From contig NC_060106.1 of the NCBI RefSeq assembly GCF_021155765.1, positions 14,844,031-14,908,030 on the forward strand: DNA of 64,000 bases, written 5' to 3'. The position numbers and the translations under genes were made by a program. Position 1 is the first letter of the stretch. Each line of letters begins with the position of its first letter. Of the stretch, positions 7,050 through 45,686 are shown piece by piece. Below the pieces are notes generated by a model that was given only the letters and a program-made list of their open reading frames with translations, made no database searches and was not told the origin of the DNA. The stretch is from Diprion similis (lineage: Eukaryota; Arthropoda; Insecta; Hymenoptera; Diprionidae).

Positions 7050-7979
7050 TCAAATCCAGGAGAACATTCTTTGCCACCAGCTCTTTGTCCCATTCACAGC
7101 GGTTGTTTCGACTGACTCTGAGTCTGTGCTTAGAATGGTCGTAGCAACTTCCGTTGTCTCAGATTCTGTAGTAGAAACTACTGAATCTTTACCAGCTTCA
7201 GATTCACTCTCTAATTCTGTCTTTACAGTTGTAGTCACATTTGCCTCTGTAGATCCTCCTTCTGCTTCTTCTTTTTCTTCTTCTTCAGGATCAGGTGTGG
7301 TCGTAGATTCTGAGTCTCCACTAGCTTCAGTTGCATTATCTGAATTTGGTTCGAAGGTAGAAGCTGCACTTGACTCTGTAGATCCATCATCTTCAGATTC
7401 TGTGGTAGATTCTGTTTCCGTGCTGGTTACAATTTCATTGTCTGATTCGGTTTCCACGGTAATGGAAGCTGGAGTTGTGCTGTTTGTAGAAGTACCTTCA
7501 GGTACAGATTCCGTTGTTGTAACTAACGCGTCTTCGTTCTCCGGGTGCTTCGGTGGTTTCTGATGCGGTGCAGGTCTTCTGTGTTCCTTCAGTTCCTTGG
7601 GATGATGCTTCGGTGGATGTCCGACTCCAAGGAGCGGGTCTCTTTCTTCGTGAGGTGGGATCTCGGGTAAGGGGCCCTTTACTTTGTGAGATTGGATCTT
7701 GCGAAGCAGATCTTCTCCGTCGTGAGGTAGCTTATGCAGGATTGAACTGAGCACGTCGTCTGGTTTATCGCGAATTTCATCTTCCTGTTTTATATGTATC
7801 CTGCCAGCTGAGGTAACGGCAGCGAACAGGATTGTGAATACCAGAGTGCAAATAACTGGGAAAGAGAATAAAAATCTTATTTTTTTTTACATTTATTGAA
7901 ATGGTAGTCGAGTTACATAACTTTGACGAAAGAAGGTTTGAAGGAAGTCCTGTAATAATTTTAGCAACTTACCCTTCAT
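7050..7979 (-). CDS. secreted acidic Ser/Thr/Glu-rich protein with 7-nt first coding exon
   Basis: I do not recognise a known family. Coding exons are 7979-7973 (ATGAAGG) and 7855-7050, joined by a 117-bp phase-1 intron with GTAAGT donor and CCCAG acceptor, giving 270 residues. The second exon completes codon 3 and yields a signal peptide (MKVICTLVFTILFAAVTSA), likely cut after residue 19. Next comes a charged region, then a His/Pro/Lys-rich stretch around residues 85-120 (HPPKHHPKELKEH). A long low-complexity segment rich in Thr, Ser, Glu and Asp follows, dense in potential O-glycosylation sites, with N-glycosylation sequons such as NST and NVT. The protein ends in an aromatic tail (SWWQRMFSWI). 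It resembles mucin-like or glue/silk accessory proteins in composition only. Its exon layout is shared with the repeat protein at 9752-12165. Confidence 0.82.
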
Positions 7980-9751: not shown

Positions 9752-12165
9752 TTACGGAGAAATAGCAGGATCGGCATTAGCTACAGAGTCGGGAGCTTCC
9801 GATGTTGTCAGAACAACAGCGCTAACGCCAGCATCAGAACTAGCATCGGCGACTGGTTCAGCAACTGGTGATGATTGAGCTGTATCGGCGCTTTCTCCAA
9901 CAACCAATTCAGAATCTGCCGATGGTACAGAGGGTTCAGAATTGATTTCGGCGATTGGTTCAGCAGCTGGTGATGGTTCAGCTGTGTCAGGACTTTCTTT
10001 AGGAACCGGTTCAGCAGCCACCGACGATGCAGAGGGTTCAGAATTGATTTCGACGACTGGTTCAGCAGCTGGTGATGGTTCAGCTGCATCAGGACTTTCT
10101 TCAACAACCGATTCAGAAACTACCGATGTTGCAGAGGGTTCAGAACTGATTTCGACGACTGGTTCAGCAGCTGGTGATGGTTCAGCTGCATCAGGACTTT
10201 CTTCAACAACCGATTCAGAAACTACCGATGTTGCAGAGGGTTCAGAACTGATTTCGACGACTGGTTCAGCAGCTGGTGATGGTTCAGCTGCATCAGGACT
10301 TTCTTCAACAACCGATTCAGAAACTACCGATGTTGCAGAGGGTTCAGAACTGATTTCGACGACTGGTTCAGCAGCTGGTGATGGTTCAGCTGCATCAGGA
10401 CTTTCTTCAACAACCGATTCAGAAACTACCGATGTTGCAGAGGGTTCAGAACTGATTTCGACGACTGGTTCAGCAGCTGGTGATGGTTCAGCTGCATCAG
10501 GACTTTCTTCAACAACCGATTCAGAAACTACCGATGTTGCAGAGGGTTCAGAACTGATTTCGACGACTGGTTCAGCAGCTGGTGATGGTTCAGCTGCATC
10601 AGGACTTTCTTCAACAACCGATTCAGAAACTACCGATGTTGCAGAGGGTTCAGAACTGATTTCGACGACTGGTTCAGCAGCTGGTGATGGTTCAGCTGCA
10701 TCAGGACTTTCTTCAACAACCGATTCAGAAACTACCGATGTTGCAGAGGGTTCAGAACTGATTTCGACGACTGGTTCAGCAGCTGGTGATGGTTCAGCTG
10801 CATCAGGACTTTCTTCAACAACCGATTCAGAAACTACCGATGATGCAGAGGGTTCAGAAGTGATTTCGACGACTGGTTCAGCAGCTGGTGATAGTTCAGC
10901 TGCATCAAGACTTTCTTCAACAACCGGTTCAGAAGCTGCCGATGGTGCAGAGGGTTCAGAACCGATTTCGACGACTGGTTCAGCAGCTGGTGGTGATTGA
11001 GCCGTATCAAGACTTTCTTGAACAACCGGTTCAGAAGCTGCTGATGGTGCAGAGGGTTCAGAACTGACTTCGACGACTGGTTCAGCAGCTGGTGATGATT
11101 GAGCTGTGTCAGGATTTCCTTCAACAACCGGTGCTGCAGTATTATCAGAACTGCCATCAACTGTTGGTTTAGAACCTACTGAGGATGTCGAAACAACAGG
11201 ACTGGCATTAGCTGATGGTCCAGCGCTTGCGGATGATGGGCTGCCTTCTCCCGCTGAAGATGCCGAAGAGGATGTTGAGGGAGCAGAACTACTTTCACCA
11301 ATTTGTCCAGACGCTACCGATGATGGAGCAGTAGAACTGCTTGATCCGGTAGCAGGTGCAGTTGCTGAATTCGATTGTGAGCTACCAGATACAATTGCAG
11401 GTGCAGAAACAGGCGATGATCCTGGGGCAGAGACACCTGATTCACTGGCAGGTCCTACCAATGAACTGGATTGCGAGCTTGCCGGTATTGTTCCAGTAGT
11501 AGATGCAGAGCCAGCATTTGGTGGTGAAGCAAAAGCATTCGCCGCATTATTAGTTGCGTGTGAGCCACCGAATTGCGGGAAAGTATTTTCAATCCTTCGA
11601 CGTTGTGATGCGATAATTTTGTGAAGCAGCGGAACTGCGGGGCCATTCTTAATCACCGGGAAATTTCTCCACAATCCTTCAAAATTTGATCCTTTCCTAG
11701 ATTTGTCTTCTACACTATCATCTTCTTCGGATTGTGAATTCGACTTATCGACTGACTTCAGTTTTTCTACTGATTCGACAGAATCTGAGTTTTTATTGGA
11801 CTCATTAGATTCCAGTGAAGATTTGTCTTTCACGTCTTCCTGCGATTCATCCGAATCATTACTCTCGGTCGATTTTCCATTAACTTTTACGAGTCCAGCG
11901 TACTTATTCCTATAAAATTCCTTGAGGTCTTCTCGGTATTGGCGCCATCGTTGAACGTTATCGGCATGACTGAAGGCAGCTAATTGTGGATGGCTTGGTT
12001 CTTCCCAACGAGGTGCTGCATAAGCGGCGCCAATTAGCACCGCCAATAAAAGAAGGGTGCATGGCACTAGAAAAAACAACGAATAGTTGAAATAATGAAA
12101 CAATGTAATCAGCAAATGTTCATGGTGATCAAGTAACTTGATTACTATAAAAATATACCTTTCAT
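9752..12165 (-). CDS. secreted Ser/Ala/Pro/Glu-rich repeat protein with twelve 34-residue repeats
   Basis: No known family is recognised. Coding exons are 12165-12159 (ATGAAAG) and 12066-9752, giving 773 residues. The start is chosen because the 7-nt exon followed by a GT...TTCTAG intron creates a clean signal peptide (MKVPCTLLLLAVLIGAAYA, cleavage before APRW). Reading straight through the intron would instead need a longer, implausible N-terminus. Residues about 20-70 form a possibly folded basic/aromatic head (QRWRQYREDLKEFYRNKYAG). An acidic Ser/Asp/Lys tract and a short basic module (LLHKIIASQRRR) follow. Then come about 150 residues of Ser/Ala/Pro/Gly mucin-like sequence, and finally the array at residues 335-742 (core SEPSATSVVSESVVEESPD). 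The low-complexity, acidic, secreted design suggests a silk, glue, cuticle or peritrophic component, but that is inference. Open antisense frames here are by-products of the repeat. Confidence 0.85.
9848..11071 (-). repeat. 12-unit, 102-bp tandem repeat array within the secreted repeat protein
   Basis: The array is exactly 12 x 102 bp, each unit coding 34 residues. Units at 10052-10765 (seven copies) encode identical peptides and look identical in DNA, including synonymous positions. The two units at the 3' end of the gene and the three at the 5' end have diverged, a pattern expected from unequal crossing-over in the centre of an array. Confidence 0.95.
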
Positions 12166-12259: not shown

Positions 12260-12267
12260 TTTATATA
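12260..12267 (-). promoter_or_regulatory. TATA box of the repeat protein gene
   Basis: TATATAAA on the minus strand lies about 100 bp upstream of the start codon at 12165. It fits a highly expressed secreted-protein promoter with a leader of roughly 65-70 nt. No experimental start site can be read from the sequence. Confidence 0.6.
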
Positions 12268-31037: not shown

Positions 31038-31268
31038 GGTAGTTGTTCTTGAAATTAAAAGAATCGAGCGTTCCTTCATTCGTTTCGCATTTACATTTAG
31101 TCTTCAGTCGCTCGGCTTCTGCAACTAGCCCTGCACAACAGCAGAAGTCCCACGAAGAGTAATTGTTAATTCTTATCACATTTTAAAATCCTCCGGCGTA
31201 AATCAATCGCCAAGTACGGACCTTGAAGCTGGTTATAATCAGTCCAACCATCAGCGACTTTCGATAAT

Positions 31269-34200
31269 ATGTTTCTAATAAAGATTTTTGACCCCTTATC
31301 GGTTTCAGTGGAGGTCAATGGCAAGGAGCTGAACGGCAAGCATTTACTCTCAAGCGAGAAGGACGCCGAGGTTGCCAAGGACGCCAACCATGGGGAAGAA
31401 ATTGACGCGGTCCAGAGCGCCATGGGCAGCTTTGGAAGGTGGCAGCTTCTCGTGTGCCTCGCAATTTCACTCGTCAAATTTCCGGTCGCCTGGCATCAGT
31501 TGGGCATCGTTTTTATGGCACCCCAACCAAAATTCGAATGCATTGCTCCGAACGGTACAGTCCATAAAGACAACTGCTACGTCAACGTTTCCGGCATCCA
31601 GGAACCTTGCACTCAATGGGATTATGACAAAAGCGTTTTCCCGGAGACTATAATAACGCAGGTATTTACGAAAAAAAGCAATAAACAAACATCGTAATAA
31701 TTTACGTGTGAAAAGACCTTTCACCGTTGGAAAATCGTTTGATACTGTTTCAGCCATCTGTTAGGTTATATATTATTAGTGTGAAAAAAGGTTTCCACTA
31801 TTCTCCCGATGAATATTCACATTTTTTAATACTAAATGCATTGTTTGCGTATCCCAGAATCAATAATTCAGTATACCGGTCGACTCGACGATCATGAATA
31901 ACTCTATTTACGCTCGAAATGCAAATCGAATGAAAGGAATAGTATGATGGGTGGGGTGTGTTCGCTCATTGACTGCAGCTCGACTACTTCCGGAAATTAA
32001 TTTACTTCACCTTCTTCCGTTTCTTAGTGGGATTTGGTCTGCGGTCAATCGTTTTACGCAGACACTTTGCAGTCTCTTCTCATGTTCGGCGTTCTTCTGG
32101 GTAACATCGTCTTCGGTAGCTTGGCAGACAGGTATATTAAACTTCTCACCATACCACATCCCCGACTTCGCGATTCGCCCGACATTTCATTCATCCGAAG
32201 AGAGTGATTCATGGTCAAATCCTCCTCGCAGGTATGGCCGGAAAAAACCTCTGGTCGGTTCCGTGGTGCTTCAGCTGGCTGCTGGAATCGGATGTGCAGT
32301 GGTTCCCTGGTTTCCTGCTCTCCTCTTTCTGAAGCCGCTCAGCGCTTTTGCTACCGGAGGAACAATGGTCACCAGCTACGTAATTTGTGAGTAATTTTCT
32401 CGTCCATTTTTTTTTTTTTTTTTTTGCTAACTATAAGTTGACGATTGTCAGTAGCGAGTGAAACGCAATTTCAGATTTCATTTAGTTCTTTTTTCACCTG
32501 CATCTGCAACTTCTCTTTTTGTTCTTAGGTATGGAGATCGTAGGCACAAAATGGCGGTCCCCCATTACGGTTCTCTATCAAATCCCTTACAGTTTGGGCC
32601 ACATGACGTTGGCGGGTCTTGCCTACGGGTTCCGACACTGGGAACACCTTCAAATAGCCATGACCGCACCGTCGATAATTCTCTTAGGCTATTGGTGGGT
32701 TGTGCCTGAATCACCCAGGTGGCTTCTTGCCATGGGAAGGCAGAAGGAAGCGTGTACGATCCTAAAAAAAGCTGCCAAACTCAACAAAGTCAAGGACAGT
32801 GACATCCCAGATATGGTCAGAAGACACTGCCTTCATCAGGTAATATAAATTCAAGATTTACAGATATAAAACATCTTTCGTAATTTGATCCTAATTCCTG
32901 ATTACAGATTTTTCAGTCAGTAACTAGCAAAGTTTATTCGGAGATTGAAAATATTTAATGCTAGGTTTTTGTCATCAGAACTCGAAAAATACAGCACCCA
33001 ACTACAAACCATCCTTCCTGGACCTCTTCAGGACACCTAACATGAGGAAGAAATCAATCGCGATATTCTTCAACTGGATGATCTGTGGAATGGGACTCTT
33101 TGGGATATCTCAATACCTGGGGCAGGTTGGCGGAGACATATTCGTGAACTTTGCTGTGTCTGGTGCCACGCAGATACCAGGAAACATCGTATCCTTGTGG
33201 GCGATGAGCGCCCTGGGCCGAAAGACGACCCTCATTTCCAGCAATACAATGACCGGAATCGCTAGTCTGATGCTCATAGCCGTACCTAAAGGTGAGAAAA
33301 GGCTGCATTCTTTTTACTCAATAACGTAATTATGATTAATAAATGTATTTGTCTGACTGCACTGCAGAGACATTTATCAGATGGGTTACGTAAGACTCTT
33401 ATTTCTGAATAAGTTTAAGCAATTAAAACCAGTACTAATTGCCCAAGAGAAATTAGATTATCGTCATTATTAAATTGCTCTAATAAACTACTCCTCTAGT
33501 TGATAACAATTACAAACAATTAGGGTACGTTGCAATTGATGTTACGATTATCATGTGTACTCACGTCAGCTGTGCAGGACTATGAAAGCTGATTAATGTA
33601 TTCGTCTTCTTTTCAGAGATCACTTGGCTCAGGCTAGTCTTAGCCTGTTTCGGTATCGTTGGGATGTCAGTTTCATTCACGACTGTTTACCTATTTTCCG
33701 GCGAGCTTTTCCCTACGGTCGTTAGGAACATCGGTGTGGGAACGAGCAGCATGTGCGCGAGAATAGGATCGATGGTTGCTCCCTTCGTCGTCTCTCTGGT
33801 GAGAAATAGAAGATTGAAAAAAAAATTGCAATTTCAGAAAACACTAGAATATCAATTCACACACGTTTCTGCGACCCGACACAATATGACGCCACTCGCT
33901 GTTTTTCTTAGTTATTGACATTTATTGTACTGCAAGTGGGACGGGGTCAGATGCGGACTTTATTCTAAGTGTACTATACAGATATTTTTATGAGTGACGA
34001 AATCTATTATGTACGTCAGACCAATGCCGTGGTTTATCTCATGTCAGGGTACTTTTAAAAACTCACTACTGAGTAGCTGTTCAGCTTGTATTTGAAAGTA
34101 CCTGTTTGGCGAAGACAGTGTTTCTTATGTTGAAAAGTAAAAATTGATTTTTAGGGTCTGAAAGAGAGCAGAGCATGGATGCCTCCGAGCGTTTTTGGAA

Positions 34201-37400: not shown

Positions 37401-39835
37401 CTTTACAGGTTCATCGATTACCGCATAGTAATATGCGGGTTGAAACGGTTTGTTAATATAGCTGACACTTCTACTATTCGAGTTGATTATAGTTATGATT
37501 TGGTATAAAACAATTATTGATTCATTCATCGAAAATTGAGCAATAACGTTGAATGTTTTTTCATTAAGTTGTACGCATTTTGAACCCTCGGCATGAATCT
37601 AATAATGCCGAAACGGGTAACTAAGGACTAAGATAAGTGTACCAGTTATCGACCCTGTCCAAATTATTGACCTTTTTTGATTGTATCTGTTTAATCAATA
37701 ATTCTAAAATGACCAAAAAATAAATTTGTAGCGTTTAACCCTCGAGCAATTGGTTTTAGCCATGGAGAAATTCATAATTTGTGCTGTTAATTTATTATTT
37801 TGGAAAATAAAAGGTTCTAAACTTGTCAATACTTGGTACACTTGCCTTATATCAAAACATATTTCCGTTGAACGTAACACCAACCTTGAAAGGAGACGTC
37901 ATGTACATACATTCACTGCATATATTTGAGATACATATTTTCATTATCTTTTTCTCATTGTTTTGCTTTCAAACTAGTGGTAAGTTATGCATTCGTTCAA
38001 AGAGCTAAGGTAATGGCCTGTCCACATATCGAAGTCCACGTATCTCAAATGCGAAAAAGGGTTTAATAGCTTCATTCTGTACACAATTCTGAACAAAAAA
38101 ACCTCCAAGACGTTTTCATTTGGCGCAAAAATAGCGAAATGGCATGGAATCTAAAAAATCGCAGTCGTAAGTTTTGCCCCTGAAAGAGATTTCACCAAAT
38201 TTTAGCATCTTGTATATTGTTCAAATGTGGTATAAATATCCAGGAACCTGTTTCACCGAATAACCACTTTAGAAGTACGCGCAAAATTACGAAAAGGTGC
38301 GATGATCTTCTGCTTCAGAACGTCAGTGAAACTTGTCTTTAGGTGTATGTTTGAAAGTCGTTAGCCTGACCCGCCGGCTCGGGCTGATGTTGTGGTTGGA
38401 ATTTATTAGTCGAGACTAGCTGAGTTCATTCGATGAAAGATAACTGTGAACGGGACTGCTATTGATTTAGGCCAGACCTTAGGTCCCGTCACTAATTCAT
38501 TATTTTTCACGGCGTGAATGTTGCTATGGGGATATCGTGCATGAAGCAGAGAATTGTGCGTAGTGAAGTGGTTCTTCAAGATATTGAATATTTTTCGCTA
38601 AACATTGGAAACCGATTATCTCATGACTATATGATCCGGTTTCCATACTCCTTGACATTCATATTTACCTTGATGTTGCAGAATGAATAAAGTTCATTCA
38701 AGTCAAATAAAAATCAGTTTAGTTACAAATGACACATCGTGAAGCGATAATTTCAATATTTGATTAAAATTGTTGTTGGATTAACGTGTCACGCAATCAT
38801 ATATTGCGTTCCAGACAGATCATCGCACATATCACGCTCTCGGTTTGCAATGTTTATCCTGATAAAAAGAAATTTTCCTATACAGCTCAGATCATGATTG
38901 TACTGTCGTTTTTCTTTGATCAACGCGATTAAAGTTATGATTGGATCTTGAAGTTGCGCTGTTCAATTATTAACGTTTATTGCTTATCGAATAATTACGC
39001 AATCCATTTGCTACGGGTTGTTTTGTTCTTCTTGCAATGGTAATTTGGCGAAGTTAGTTTTAATGCTTATAATACACACTATCTATGCTGCGCGTGTTTT
39101 GCAACGTATGCCAATTTATTATCATCAGTTCTTCCCAAGGTCGTGATTTATGAGAAAGTCTCGAGGAATAACAAATTTGGGAATTTCCGAGTACTTTGCG
39201 AATCACGTGAGTTGTTAAGATGCTATTACAGAGCTGGTTTTTATTTTTGGAACGAACTGTGATACCCACGATTTTCCTGGTAGTGTATTGTCCTTGAAAA
39301 TGACATGATTTCTTCTCACGTAATCGCACAATTTCGCAATCACAGCACTGCCGCGGAAATAAAAATTAAGCTGAATTAATTGATCATGGCCATATCGTTA
39401 AAATCATTAGGCAGACCAATTATTAATTCTGATTATTAGTTCGATACTAACAATGATATATTTCTCGTGCCACTACGCTTGATATTTCTGTAAGCGACAG
39501 TGTTGCCAGTGGTAAAGTCGAACCTTGCTTTCCTTTCCATCAACCATGACTCAATTCCGGGCATTTGGATTCGCTCGGTAATTATGCACGCTGAAAATAA
39601 CTGTGCACAGAATGACATACAAACACGTATGACTGGCATAATTAATTTTCAGCCCGTCAATTGTCAGTGAAATAATAAACTTTCAACGCATCTTCACGCC
39701 CGATGGTTTCCCCTGAAACCCCATTATTACCACGATGACCTACATTTACTAATAGAGCAAGGAATATCCACGGTCGGGTAGTTGTTCGGAAATGTGGACA
39801 TTTTTTCAAGCAACATTTTTACTGTTATATTACAG
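34448..39835. other. about 5.4 kb non-coding, with the second MITE copy
   Basis: The SLC22-like 3' end and probably the first exon and promoter of the yellow/MRJP gene fall here, but I could not locate that exon. A 194-codon open frame at 36654-37238 and overlapping frames show no domain or compositional signal, and I do not call a gene. The region is AT-rich throughout. Confidence 0.5.
37631..37847. mobile_element. MITE-like element, copy 2 (TA-flanked, terminal inverted repeats)
   Basis: The 217-bp element starts AGATAAGTGTACCAGTTATC and ends TGGTACACTTGCCT, with TA on both sides (37629-37630 and 37848-37849). It shares TATTGACCTTTTTT, TTGTATCTGTT-like and GTAGCGTYTAAC blocks with the copy at 14059-14222 and is longer by an internal insertion of about 50 bp. 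It encodes no protein. Confidence 0.78.
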
Positions 39836-41418
39836 TGCGCAGCACATCTTTAAAGTACTTGACACTCCTGCTGGGGGTGGCAACTGCGTCTCTCGGCCCT
39901 TTCCAAGAACTCTACACTTGGAAGCAGCTCGACTTTGAATTCCCAACATCAAATGCTCGCGAGGCGGCGATCGCCTCTGGTGACTTTGTTCAGATCAACA
40001 ATCTTCCCGTAGGCATTGAAATCTGGAAGGACAAGTTATTCGTCACGGTACCAAGATGGAAGAAGGGGGTTCCCTCGAATTTGAATTACATCTCACTGTC
40101 GAACACAACCGGTAAGAAGATCGCAAGTTTATTCAGTCATCATCTGTTGGTAACATCGCAACTTTGTCCTTCACATTTCAACCTGTGTTTTAATTTATTG
40201 GAAATTCATGTTCCAGATAACAAATCACCGGCCTTAATTCCGTACCCGGATTGGGAAACGAACGACATCCACCAGACCGGAAAAGAGTCCATAGTCAACA
40301 TCTTCCGGCTGGCGGTCGATGCTTGCGATCGATTGTGGGGTATCGACGCAGGTTCCGACGACATTCTGGGCGAAGGTGCCTTGGTTGCTCCGGTTCAGCT
40401 GATCATCATCGATCTGAAGACTGACCAAGTTCGTAGATTTCTCTAATTTTTTCCGTAGAACAATCAATTCTTGGTCTGCATCCATTGGGCTCGTCGTTAA
40501 ACGCGAATTTGTTATTCATCAGGTAATTCGGCGTTACCGTCTCACTGAGGGCGACCAGAGGTTTGAGTCCTTCTTCGCGAACCTGGTGGTCGACGTAGAG
40601 GCTGATGCCTGCGATCAAGCCTTCGCTTACGTTTCTGACCTCGGTGCCAACGGCCTGGTTGTCTACAGCTGGGAACAGAACAAGTCGTGGAGAGTCGACC
40701 ACAACTTTTTCGCCTTTGACCCTCTGCACGGTGATTTGCAAATTTTTCGAGAGAGTGCCAGAGTTGATTGACCAGACCTTGACTAGTTCCGCTGCTATAA
40801 TTTCACTGTTTACAGGTGACTTCAACGTCAGTGGAATCAACTTCCAATGGACCGATGGAATCTTCGGCATGGCTCTGAGCCCGTTGCGGAGTGACGGATC
40901 GAAACACTTGTATTTCCACGCTTTGGCCTCAATCACTGAGTTCGAGGTGTCAACGACTGTTCTGAAAGACGAAGTACTGGCAACGTCGAACGGGAATTAT
41001 TACCACTTCAAGAGACTCGGTTACAAGGGTGAGCTCAGTCAGTGTACGGCATCTGTGATGGATTGGAAGACCGGAGTGGCTTTCTTCGCAGCTGTGAATA
41101 GGAACGCGATCGCGTGTTGGAACACTAAGAAATCGCTGGATCAGTCCAGCTTCCGTAAGTGAAAATCCCCTATTTTCGTAGTTCGAAAAATGCGATGCAT
41201 GGTTTAAGCATGGGCTTTTTTTATTCATAGGTCTTGTTGCCGAAGACAAGGACGCTTTGTTGTTCCCGAACGATGTCAAGATCTCCCGAGATACCAGAGA
41301 GCTCTACGTTATCTCCGATAAATTGCCACTGTTTCAATATGCTAACATAGATCCTCAGCAGGTTAATTATCGTATTCTTAAAACCTCCGTCGATGAAGCA
41401 GCGAAGACTTGTCTGTGA
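39836..41418 (+). CDS. yellow / major royal jelly protein family member (5' exon not located)
   Basis: This is a secreted protein of the yellow/MRJP family, whose members have roles in cuticle melanisation, behaviour or, in bees, larval food. Which member this is cannot be decided here. Exons are 39836-40111, 40217-40428, 40523-40730, 40816-41154 and 41231-41418 (TGA at 41416-41418), about 407 residues plus exon 1. Phases agree throughout; the donor after 40428 (GTTCGT) is weak. The first exon shown encodes a hydrophobic leader (SLKYLTLLLGVATASLG). Family blocks are YTWKQLDFEF, PVGIEIWKDKLFVTVPRWK, GVPSNLNYI, LIPYPDW, LWGIDAG, FAYVSDLGANGLVVY, FQWTDGIFGMALSP, FPNDVKISRD and LYVISDKLP. The exon begins with TG after an acceptor, so the start codon lies in an upstream exon ending in phase 1. 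No in-frame ATG precedes the leader in this exon. Confidence 0.92.
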
Positions 41419-42731: not shown

Positions 42732-43780
42732 TTAGACACCGGTGTTGGTTCTGATCCAGTCGCGGTAGATGGCAGTGCGAGCATAGACTCCAGGGTTGTT
42801 GGCACGAGCGCAACCACTGCCCCAAGATACGACACCAATGAGGGAACCACCGCTGACAAGAGGGCCTCCGGAATCTCCTTGGCAGGCATCACGGCCTCCG
42901 GCAAGGTAGCCGGCGCAGAGCATGTTGCTTGTGATGCCACCCCAGTAGAGAAGGTTGCAGGTGGTCTGGGCAACAACCGGAACCGAAACCTGCTGCAGAA
43001 CAGTTGGCAAGCTACTGGCACCCTCAGTCATGGTGCCCCATCCGGAAACCACGGCGTAGACACCGCTGGAAACAGCTTGTCCTTGGGATGGAAGAGCTAC
43101 AGCACGGACGGTGCTGCTCAGGGTGAAAGCAGCGCTCACTCTGAGAAGACTGATGTCGTTGTCAATGGTCCTCGCGTTGTAGCTGGGGTGGTTGATCACC
43201 AAGGAAACGGCGCGCACTTGTCCACCGGAAAGACGGTTTGCACTTCCAGCCTGGAGGGACATTCCTGATGCGGTACGACCGACGGTGCAGTGAGCCGCGG
43301 AGACGGCCCATGTCGAGGAGATCAGGGCAGCACCACAGAAGTGGGCGTTGTTCCATCGCAGACTCAGCTGGTACGGGAAGTCGCTGATGCTGGCGGAAGA
43401 TCCGCCAACGATGCGACCGAACTCATCGAACTGAGCATGTTCTAAAAATCCATGAGTTATGATCAGAACTTGAAATCTTTATCCTTTTCGTGGAAAAGAT
43501 TAATTTTATACCTTATCATGTGATGAGCATGTTAATATGTTACACTCTGATTCTAAGCTACGTGTGTTGCAGTCGAAATTGAATTTTTTTTCATCGCTTT
43601 TGAAAGAAATTTGAATTACGATTTGACTAAAGTATTGCAAAGTATTAGCGGTCTACGAAAAGCTGGTATTTGAATTCTATTTAACAGCAAAGTTCTTGAT
43701 TGAAATTTTTGCAACTGTTGTAACTTACCGCCGTAGGCGACAGCTGAGAGAGCCAGGAGAAGTGCCAAGTATCGGAACAT
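42732..43780 (-). CDS. trypsin-like serine protease precursor (tandem copy 1)
   Basis: A secreted digestive-type trypsin that cleaves after Arg or Lys. Exons are 43780-43729 and 43441-42732 with a 287-bp phase-1 intron; the product has 253 residues. The signal peptide (MFRYLALLLALSAVAYG) is followed by a ten-residue acidic propeptide cut at Arg27 before IVGG. The catalytic triad is His68 (SAAHC), Asp113 (DNDISLL) and Ser208 (GDSGGP). Asp202 in DACQGDSGG occupies the base of the S1 pocket, giving trypsin specificity. Six cysteines fit the three disulfides of invertebrate trypsins. The gene is 0.8 kb from a close paralogue in the same orientation. Midgut expression is likely by family but not shown by the sequence. 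Confidence 0.95.
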
Positions 43781-44592: not shown

Positions 44593-45686
44593 TCACATGC
44601 CCGTGTAGGTTCTGATCCAGTCTCGATAAACAGCAGTGCGAGTATAGACTCCAGGAAAATCGCGACGGGCGCAACCATTGCCCCAAGAGACGATGCCGAC
44701 GAGAATTCCATTGCTAACAAGAGGGCCTCCAGAATCTCCTTGACAGGCATCACTGCCTCCAGTGAGGTAGCCGGCGCAGAGCATGTTGCTGGTGATCTTG
44801 CCGTTGTAGAGGTTGTTGCAAGTGACCGAAGTAACAAGTGGCACCGAGACCTGTTGCAAGAATATGGGTACGTGTGTGGAGCCTTCCCTCGTGGTTCCCC
44901 ATCCTGAGACCATGGCGTTAACACCAGCAAAGACTCTCTGTCCCTGGTAGGGAAGAGGTATAACCTGCACGGTGTTGCTCAGGATGAAAGCACCTTTGGC
45001 TCTGATAAGACTGATGTCGTTGTCCATGGTCATCGCGTTGTATTTGGGGTGGTTGATCGTCAGGAAAACATCGCGGACTTGTCCACTGGACAGACGGTTT
45101 GCTGTTCCAGCAAGGAGAGACAGATCTGATGTTCTGCGATCGATGGTGCAGTGAGCTGCGGAGACGGCCCATGTCGAAGAGATCAGGGAAGCACCGCAGA
45201 AGTGTTCGTTTCTCCAACGCAAGCTTAGCTGGTATGGGAATTCCTCGATACTGGCTGCCAAACCACCGGCGACGCGACCGTCATCGTAAGCAGCAGATTC
45301 ATTTTTCTCTAAAAATATTGAATTTTTTATAGCTCTAGTTTTGGAGATCAGTTTTGTGTTTGTTAAGTTCTATGTGTATGATAATATGTTCGTGCATACG
45401 ACTATGAATTCCTTTGTGGGAATTTGAAATTTCGCTGATTAGGAACTCGAAAAGAAACTGCGAATTTTAGATCGTCGAAAGTATATGAGTTTCAGTTCAG
45501 TTGTGTTTAATTATGAATATAAAGTACTACAAGAACTTTGGGCAGGCGCATGATGTGCGATGTTTTTTGAAGATTGAGTGATACGATTGAATCCGGAAAA
45601 TTCTTACCCAAATTAGGTGCTCTTAATTACTTACCACCGTAGGCAACGGCTGAGAGTGCCAAGAGAAGTGTCAAGAATCGAAACAT
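44593..45686 (-). CDS. trypsin-like serine protease precursor (tandem copy 2)
   Basis: A paralogue of the neighbouring trypsin with the same two-exon structure: exons 45686-45635 and 45308-44593, a 326-bp phase-1 intron, 255 residues. The signal peptide MFRFLTLLLALSAVAYG is nearly identical to copy 1, while the propeptide (EKNESAAYDDGR) has diverged. Activation at Arg29 would release the less usual N-terminus VAGG instead of IVGG. His70 (SAAHC), the Asp of DNDISLI, Ser210 (GDSGGP) and the S1 Asp204 are all present, as are six cysteines, so it should be an active trypsin. Valine can replace isoleucine at the new N-terminus in active proteases. The order and orientation point to local duplication. 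Confidence 0.94.

What the first reader, a model, noticed from the sequence alone, without database searches (positions are those of the whole stretch)
9848..11071. Recently homogenised 34-residue repeat array in a novel secreted protein
Seen: exactly twelve 102-bp units, the central seven identical in protein and apparently in DNA, with diverged units at both ends. The protein has a signal peptide, a basic/aromatic head and a mucin-like middle, and matches no family I know. Inference: unequal exchange or gene conversion keeps the centre uniform, so copy number probably varies between individuals. An acidic, Pro/Ser/Val-rich periodic protein may be a structural secretion such as silk, glue or a lining.
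Basis: partly seen in the sequence, partly recalled or inferred. Interest (0 to 1): 0.72.

Follow-up and report, generated by a model that had tools for sequence, protein, structure and literature searches.

The report
Insect secreted repeat-rich protein gene
An insect gene for a predicted secreted, acidic, serine-rich protein carries a run of near-identical 34-residue repeats, in design much like known glue, mucin and silk-coat genes; the protein matches nothing in the collections searched, but its kind is familiar.

Summary
The array is real. It lies in a minus-strand gene with a predicted seven-base coding first exon (12165-12159), a 92-bp intron and one long exon (12066-9752), 773 codons: signal peptide, mixed-charge aromatic head, Ser-rich middle, twelve 102-bp units. 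Seven units are identical in DNA; exact period-102 identity covers 10045-10842. Only this copy was found in its genome, and no relative in Pfam, NCBIfam, PDB, prokaryote or viral contigs; no insect collection was held. Best reading: a bulk gland secretion (adhesive, mucin or silk coat) whose array length turns over by unequal exchange or slippage. Tissue, species and copy-number variation could not be tested. A new member of a known kind; modest interest.

The parts
12260..12267 (-). TATA-like box (TATATAAA), about 95 bp before the ATG
   Evidence: read directly; no animal promoter test was available
12159..12165 (-). predicted exon 1 coding part, ATGAAAG (codons 1-2 plus first base of codon 3)
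   Evidence: spliced model; no transcript evidence
12067..12158 (-). predicted 92-bp phase-1 intron inside the signal-peptide coding region
   Evidence: GTATATTT ... TTTTTTCTAG
9752..12066 (-). exon 2 up to and including the stop codon; with exon 1 encodes 773 aa, pI 4.05, 77 kDa
   Evidence: open frame also
9869..11092 (-). twelve 102-bp (34-residue) units U1-U12
10073..10786 (-). units U4-U10, identical in DNA
   Evidence: exact period-102 tract 10045-10842
11093..11143 (-). degenerate 17-residue half-unit before U1 (NTAAPVVEGNPDTAQSS)
   Evidence: 12.0 bits over its last 13 residues
9818..9868 (-). degenerate half-unit after U12 (PVAEPVADASSDAGVSA)
   Evidence: 4.5 bits over 13 residues, weak
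7973..7979 (-). neighbour gene g2, predicted exon 1 coding part ATGAAGG
7050..7855 (-). neighbour gene g2, exon 2 to stop; 270 aa, Glu/Thr/Ser-rich, leader MKVICTL

Best explanation
A single-copy insect gene, without known relatives, for a bulk extracellular polymer secreted from a gland as a hydrated acidic adhesive, mucin-like or silk-coat protein. Shown from sequence: a hydrophobic leader completed by a predicted tiny first exon with a phase-1 intron, one long coding exon, a mixed-charge aromatic head, a Ser-rich middle, and a C-terminal array with one basic and no aromatic residue. Inferred: the head anchors or condenses the protein, while the acidic Ser/Pro/Val/Ala array forms an extended, perhaps O-glycosylated, water- and ion-binding chain whose length and composition matter more than its exact sequence. 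A 51-bp repeat duplicated into a 102-bp dimer, which was then amplified and made uniform by unequal exchange or slippage; the unit is a multiple of three, so gaining or losing units keeps the frame.
For: Spliced model with leader MKVPCTLLLLAVLIGAAYA and a 773-aa frame. Residues 341-773: 95 D+E, 1 K+R, no W/F/Y. Seven identical units with diverged edges. Dimeric unit: 61.6% DNA identity at offset 51 against 37.7% for the next best. Units differ with pooled pN 0.139 and pS 0.092, so residue identity is not preserved, yet 1 of 26 distinct replacements brings in K/R/F/W/Y/C/M/H against 20.6% expected, p 0.02. Drosophila Sgs glue genes have the same design: several with a phase-1 intron in the signal peptide, Pro/Thr/Ser-rich repeats, predicted disorder, repeat number varying within populations (PMC6352337: abstract and passages, sections 12 and 13). 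The neighbour g2 shares leader and intron position.
Against: No expression, proteomic or tissue evidence, and no relative, so function rests on composition and architecture that many insect secretions share; a phase-1 intron after the signal peptide occurs in other secreted genes too (Nasonia nasonins, PMC2853521, passages). The composition test is marginal, small, and treats replacements as independent. Neutral-like pN and pS could also mean a nearly dispensable tail. The array lies beside the order-disorder line (H 0.485, boundary 0.491) and the Ser-rich middle falls on the ordered side of that rule. AlphaFold2 draws strands in the core units.
Confidence: 0.5

Rival explanations
1. A mucin-like lining protein of gut, duct or egg rather than an expelled glue or silk coat; it works as a hydrated polyanionic barrier.
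For: Hydrophobic leader, Ser-rich middle and acidic array; no transmembrane-like stretch after the array (read by eye in the protein).
Against: No Pfam domain at E 0.1 or better, so no chitin-binding domain. Little Thr: 3.0% against 21.3% Ser in the repeat part.
Confidence: 0.25
2. A reproductive or venom-gland secretion (egg coat, oviposition adhesive, seminal fluid protein) evolving fast.
For: Only one copy found and fast residue turnover between units, pN above pS.
Against: pN above pS rests on few, shared events: by column, 7 of 30 variable sites are third positions, p 0.33 two-sided.
Confidence: 0.15
3. A multi-copy precursor cut into many identical bioactive peptides (neuropeptide or antimicrobial precursor).
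For: Tandem identical units behind a leader.
Against: One K/R in residues 341-773 and none in U1-U10 and U12, so no dibasic cleavage sites between units; units strongly acidic.
Confidence: 0.03
4. A regular acidic beta-stacked fibre protein in which each 34-residue unit forms a layer of strands. Not exclusive of the secretion readings.
For: AlphaFold2 draws two strands in each of U3-U11; block-mean pLDDT reaches 79 within U4-U10; one strand lies in half A and the other mostly in half B.
Against: Single-sequence model, mean pLDDT 47.3 for the best of five and 32.5-41.3 for the other four; block means are 33-37 in U1, 35-42 in U2 and 37-44 in U12, as expected if exact repetition drives the prediction (a known weakness, recalled). 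The two strands are not at matching positions of the two halves. Foldseek against PDB: 38 matches at E 10 or less, 0 at 0.001 or less, best 0.96.
Confidence: 0.1
5. Assembly error: a collapsed or inflated array. Not exclusive of the others.
For: Identical units are where such errors arise; no reads were available.
Against: Contig of 22.8 Mb, contig C1 begins in telomeric repeat, frame intact through all units, array about 1.3 kb, shorter than ordinary long reads (recalled; the sequencing method is unknown).
Confidence: 0.05

Closest known systems
Drosophila salivary glue genes (Sgs1, Sgs3, Sgs4, Sgs5, Eig71Ee)
   Same: Signal peptide split by a phase-1 intron in Sgs1, 3, 7, 8 and Eig71Ee; internal repeats rich in Pro, Thr and Ser, predicted disordered; repeat number varies between strains; Glu-Pro repeats in Sgs5 of two species (PMC6352337, passages and sections 12, 13).
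   Different: Sgs3 and Sgs4 repeats are short and Thr- or Cys-bearing (29 residues for Sgs1 in D. suzukii); here 34-residue Ser/Glu/Val/Pro/Ala units near the C-terminus, no Cys in the mature protein, intron after the first base of codon 3. No sequence comparison with Sgs was run.
Bombyx mori sericin 1 (silk coat)
   Same: Secreted Ser-rich protein built mainly of one repeat of similar length, 38 residues, 31% Ser (PMC9745057 passage).
   Different: Here Ser is 22.1% of the mature protein with high Ala, Glu, Val and Pro; no sequence comparison with sericin was run.
Lepidopteran silk mucins
   Same: Serine-rich repeats that include Pro in a secreted protein (PMC9745057 passage).
   Different: Low Thr here, 3.6% overall; no sequence comparison was run.
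Neighbour gene g2 (window 7979-7050)
   Same: Adjacent, same strand, predicted seven-base first exon, intron after first base of codon 3, leader MKVxCTL, acidic.
   Different: No 34-residue repeats (unit profile -2.0 bits); mature parts give only short weak matches, E 10 or worse; ends in a Trp-rich tail.

Membership tests
Drosophila-type salivary glue (Sgs) genes | Signal peptide interrupted by a phase-1 intron | tested here: met
   predicted gene model: intron after first base of codon 3; not specific to glue genes
Drosophila-type salivary glue (Sgs) genes | Conserved C-terminal region after the repeats | tested here: inconclusive
   38 residues follow U12, without Cys; no relatives to judge conservation, and no Sgs C-terminus was aligned
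Drosophila-type salivary glue (Sgs) genes | Late-larval salivary gland expression | not testable with these tools
   no expression data held
Sericin-like silk-coat proteins | Serine-rich, repetitive, hydrophilic, secreted | tested here: met
   22.1% Ser, GRAVY -0.38 for the mature protein, 12 repeats, leader by eye
Sericin-like silk-coat proteins | Silk gland expression and presence in silk | not testable with these tools
   no expression or proteome data held
Sericin-like silk-coat proteins | Sequence or gene-cluster homology to a known sericin | not tested
   no sericin sequence fetched; no insect protein collection held
Peritrophin / chitin-binding mucins | Chitin-binding domains | tested here: not met
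   0 Pfam families at E 0.1 or better
Multi-peptide precursors | Dibasic cleavage sites between units | tested here: not met
   1 K+R in residues 341-773; it lies in U11

The most novel reading that the evidence does not exclude
Genes g1 and g2 are the founding pair of an unrecognised, lineage-specific family of insect extracellular polymers that share only a leader module (seven-base first exon, phase-1 intron, MKVxCTL signal) while the bulk coding exon is re-invented freely; in g1 the bulk is an acidic Val-bearing hierarchical repeat (17 to 34 residues) that may stack as beta layers.
Probability: 0.15. Interest if true: 0.5.

Novelty: new member of a known kind. Interest (0 to 1): 0.3.

Why it matters
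If it is a gland polymer, it is one more case of an insect building a bulk secretion from a short repeat that multiplies inside one exon, with the step from 17 to 34 residues still readable in the DNA. The uniform core and diverged edges make it a handy marker for measuring unit turnover between individuals and sister species. A leader shared with an otherwise different neighbour would let a 'same leader, new bulk' route to new secretions be tested. It is not a new kind of system.

Tried and rejected
Antisense reading: the plus strand is open for 373 codons at 9879-11000, but my scan for spliced leader exons returned nothing on that strand, and in each of the five other frames at least one of the six distinct units holds a stop. 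Taken as a by-product of a 102-bp unit.

Positive selection: against the core, 41 codon differences are nonsynonymous and 4 synonymous, and 7 of 49 base differences are at third positions; but many are shared between units, and by column 7 of 30 is not significant.

Motifs: six patterns in four stretches were compared with shuffles. S-x-E, a phosphoserine-type motif, is depleted in residues 341-773 (7, shuffles 16.9) and mildly enriched in residues 20-340 (10 against 5.3, p 0.02); Pro next to Ser/Thr is mildly enriched in the array (p 0.02-0.03). None survives a correction for that many tests, except closely spaced Ser/Thr in g2 (0 of 2000 shuffles).

Shared promoter motifs of g1 and g2: the one exact 11-mer lies at the ATG of g1 and 63 bases before that of g2; nothing convincing.

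Beta-solenoid: drawn by AlphaFold2 in U3-U11 with confidence only in the near-identical units; Foldseek gave nothing.

Species: a pine sawfly (Neodiprion) was a guess from genome size; a primer-paper search and a genome-note search on total length did not help. TTAGG telomere repeats, a COI in invertebrate mitochondrial code and a yellow/MRJP gene say insect; the order is not proven. The co-receptor fragment search hit, but does not separate orders.

Literature: keyword searches on silk, sawfly and hymenopteran secretions were seen as listings only; nothing listed looked like this protein. Six peptide strings from g1 and g2 occur in 0 papers.

Prokaryote and viral contigs: 79 and 10 pattern matches, none a relative by tblastn at E 1e-3; that tool reaches close relatives only.

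A profile search was lost and failed on options; it ran. One COI translation was on the wrong strand and was redone.

Full report
Setting. The window is part of contig C2 (22.8 Mb) of a 269-Mb genome in 60 contigs. A TTAGG 25-mer matches from base 5 of contig C1, with 10300 forward and 6745 reverse matches in the genome, and a COI frame reads in invertebrate mitochondrial code. Neighbouring genes include a beta-galactosidase, a yellow/MRJP gene and a trypsin. So it is an insect; order and species were not established.

Gene. The array lies in the C-terminal part of a minus-strand gene (g1). The unspliced 815-codon frame runs through what I take to be an intron. The spliced model has a seven-base coding first exon ATGAAAG (12165-12159), a 92-bp intron and exon 2 to a TAA at 9754-9752: 773 aa, pI 4.05, 77 kDa. 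A TATATAAA box lies about 95 bp before the ATG (read). The leader reads MKVPCTLLLLAVLIGAAYA, a signal peptide by eye; no prediction program or transcript was available. Residues 20-170 hold 27 acidic and 24 basic residues and 12 of the 13 aromatic residues (W/F/Y) counted after residue 19; residues 171-340 hold 10 acidic and 1 basic and are Ser/Ala/Pro-rich by eye; residues 341-773 hold 95 acidic and 1 basic. These cuts are rough: U1 starts at residue 328.

Array. There are twelve units of 102 bp. U4-U10 are identical; U1, U2, U3, U11 and U12 differ from them by 13, 7, 2, 12 and 15 bases. Exact period-102 identity covers 10045-10842, 798 bp. Tandem Repeats Finder agrees. The unit is a dimer: at offset 51 the array DNA is 61.6% identical to itself, the next best of offsets 3-99 being 37.7%. 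Codon-shuffle tests of half A against half B gave DNA p values of 0.0004 or less in five of the six distinct units and 0.0076 in U12. At protein level the p values were 0.023 (U1), 0.004 (U2), 0.13 (U3), 0.047 (core), 0.025 (U11) and 0.54 (U12), and a maximum-over-offsets test on the core unit gave 0.06; the case for the dimer therefore rests on the DNA. A half-unit profile also finds a degenerate half before U1 (12.0 bits) and a weak one after U12 (4.5 bits). So the history reads 51 bp, then 102 bp, then amplification of the dimer.

How recent. With no difference in 7 x 102 bp and an assumed rate of 3.5e-9 per site per generation (recalled, not measured), the 95% upper bound for a star-like amplification is about 1.2 million generations, or 4.5 million if only synonymous sites count. 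One recent expansion and ongoing homogenisation fit equally.

Constraint. Over the 15 pairs of six distinct units pooled pN is 0.139 and pS 0.092. By column, 7 of 30 variable sites are third positions, p 0.33 two-sided. Of 26 distinct replacements against the core, 1 introduces K/R/F/W/Y/C/M/H where 20.6% is expected from single-base changes, p 0.02. This suggests selection on composition rather than on sequence; it is a small sample with a marginal p value.

Relatives. Genome searches with a shortened copy of the protein and with the head alone, both at E up to 10, found only this gene; the tool scores only its best candidates. Pfam, NCBIfam and PDB gave no relative of g1, nor did prokaryote and viral contigs. 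No insect collection is held, so absence from other insects is untested. Six peptide strings from g1 and g2 occur in none of the papers searched.

Neighbour. About 1.8 kb downstream on the same strand lies g2 (7979-7050, 270 aa), also with a predicted seven-base first exon, an intron after the first base of codon 3, and the leader MKVICTL. A scan for leader exons of up to 13 bases with introns of 50-199 bases, over the window plus 10 kb to its left, returned these two and no other. The leaders align better than any of 3000 codon shuffles at protein level, and with p 0.001 at DNA level; such shuffles do not keep the order of regions that signal peptides share, so this overstates the case. The mature parts give only short weak matches and g2 has no units; in the genome g2 has one other match, at E 6. 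A shared origin of the leader is likely but not proven.

Structure. The charge-hydropathy rule puts head and array on the disordered side, the array only just, and the middle on the ordered side. AlphaFold2 on exon 2 alone gave mean pLDDT 47.3 (other models 32.5-41.3), helices at 27-61 and 144-162 of the model besides the leader, and two strands in each of U3-U11. Confidence falls to 33-44 in U1, U2 and U12, so I treat the strands as a probable effect of exact repetition. Foldseek found 38 matches at E 10 or less and 0 at 0.001 or less.

Mechanism. Shown: acidic composition, repeat hierarchy, recent amplification; predicted: secretion. Inferred: abundant gland secretion, extended hydrated chain, possible O-glycosylation, array length as the adjustable property. 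Drosophila glue genes are the closest described parallel in design (PMC6352337: abstract, passages and sections 12 and 13); their repeat number differs between strains, for Sgs3 from 22 to 31 (section 13). Bombyx sericin 1, with its 38-residue repeat, is another (PMC9745057, passages). PMC10835880 was seen as abstract and outline. These are analogies; no sequence kinship was shown or tested.

Verdict. This is a new member of a familiar kind: fast-turning, repeat-built insect secretions.

Noticed in passing
window 7979-7050 (-): Second predicted secreted gene with the same tiny first exon and MKVxCTL leader; Glu/Thr/Ser-rich, four N-glycosylation sequons, tail SWWQRMFSWI.
   Followed up: partly
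window 39739-41162 (+): Exons matching the Major royal jelly protein / yellow family (PF03022); for the second exon the best solved relative is a dopachrome conversion enzyme.
   Followed up: no
window 42732-43478 and 44593-45369 (-): Two trypsin-like serine protease frames side by side (first one PF00089; the second by eye).
   Followed up: no
window 2229 to about 6100 (-): Multi-exon beta-galactosidase gene (PF21467 and PF21317 in two exons; extent by eye).
   Followed up: no
window 9879-11000 (+): Antisense frame of 373 codons open across most of the array; judged a by-product of the repeat.
   Followed up: partly
L017 (G000 contig C7:8182164-8182700): COI-like stretch with five TGA on a second contig: perhaps a nuclear copy of mitochondrial DNA.
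   Followed up: no
window 31239-33918 (+): Several frames that by eye look like an organic cation transporter; Pfam gave no match for the one frame tested.
   Followed up: no
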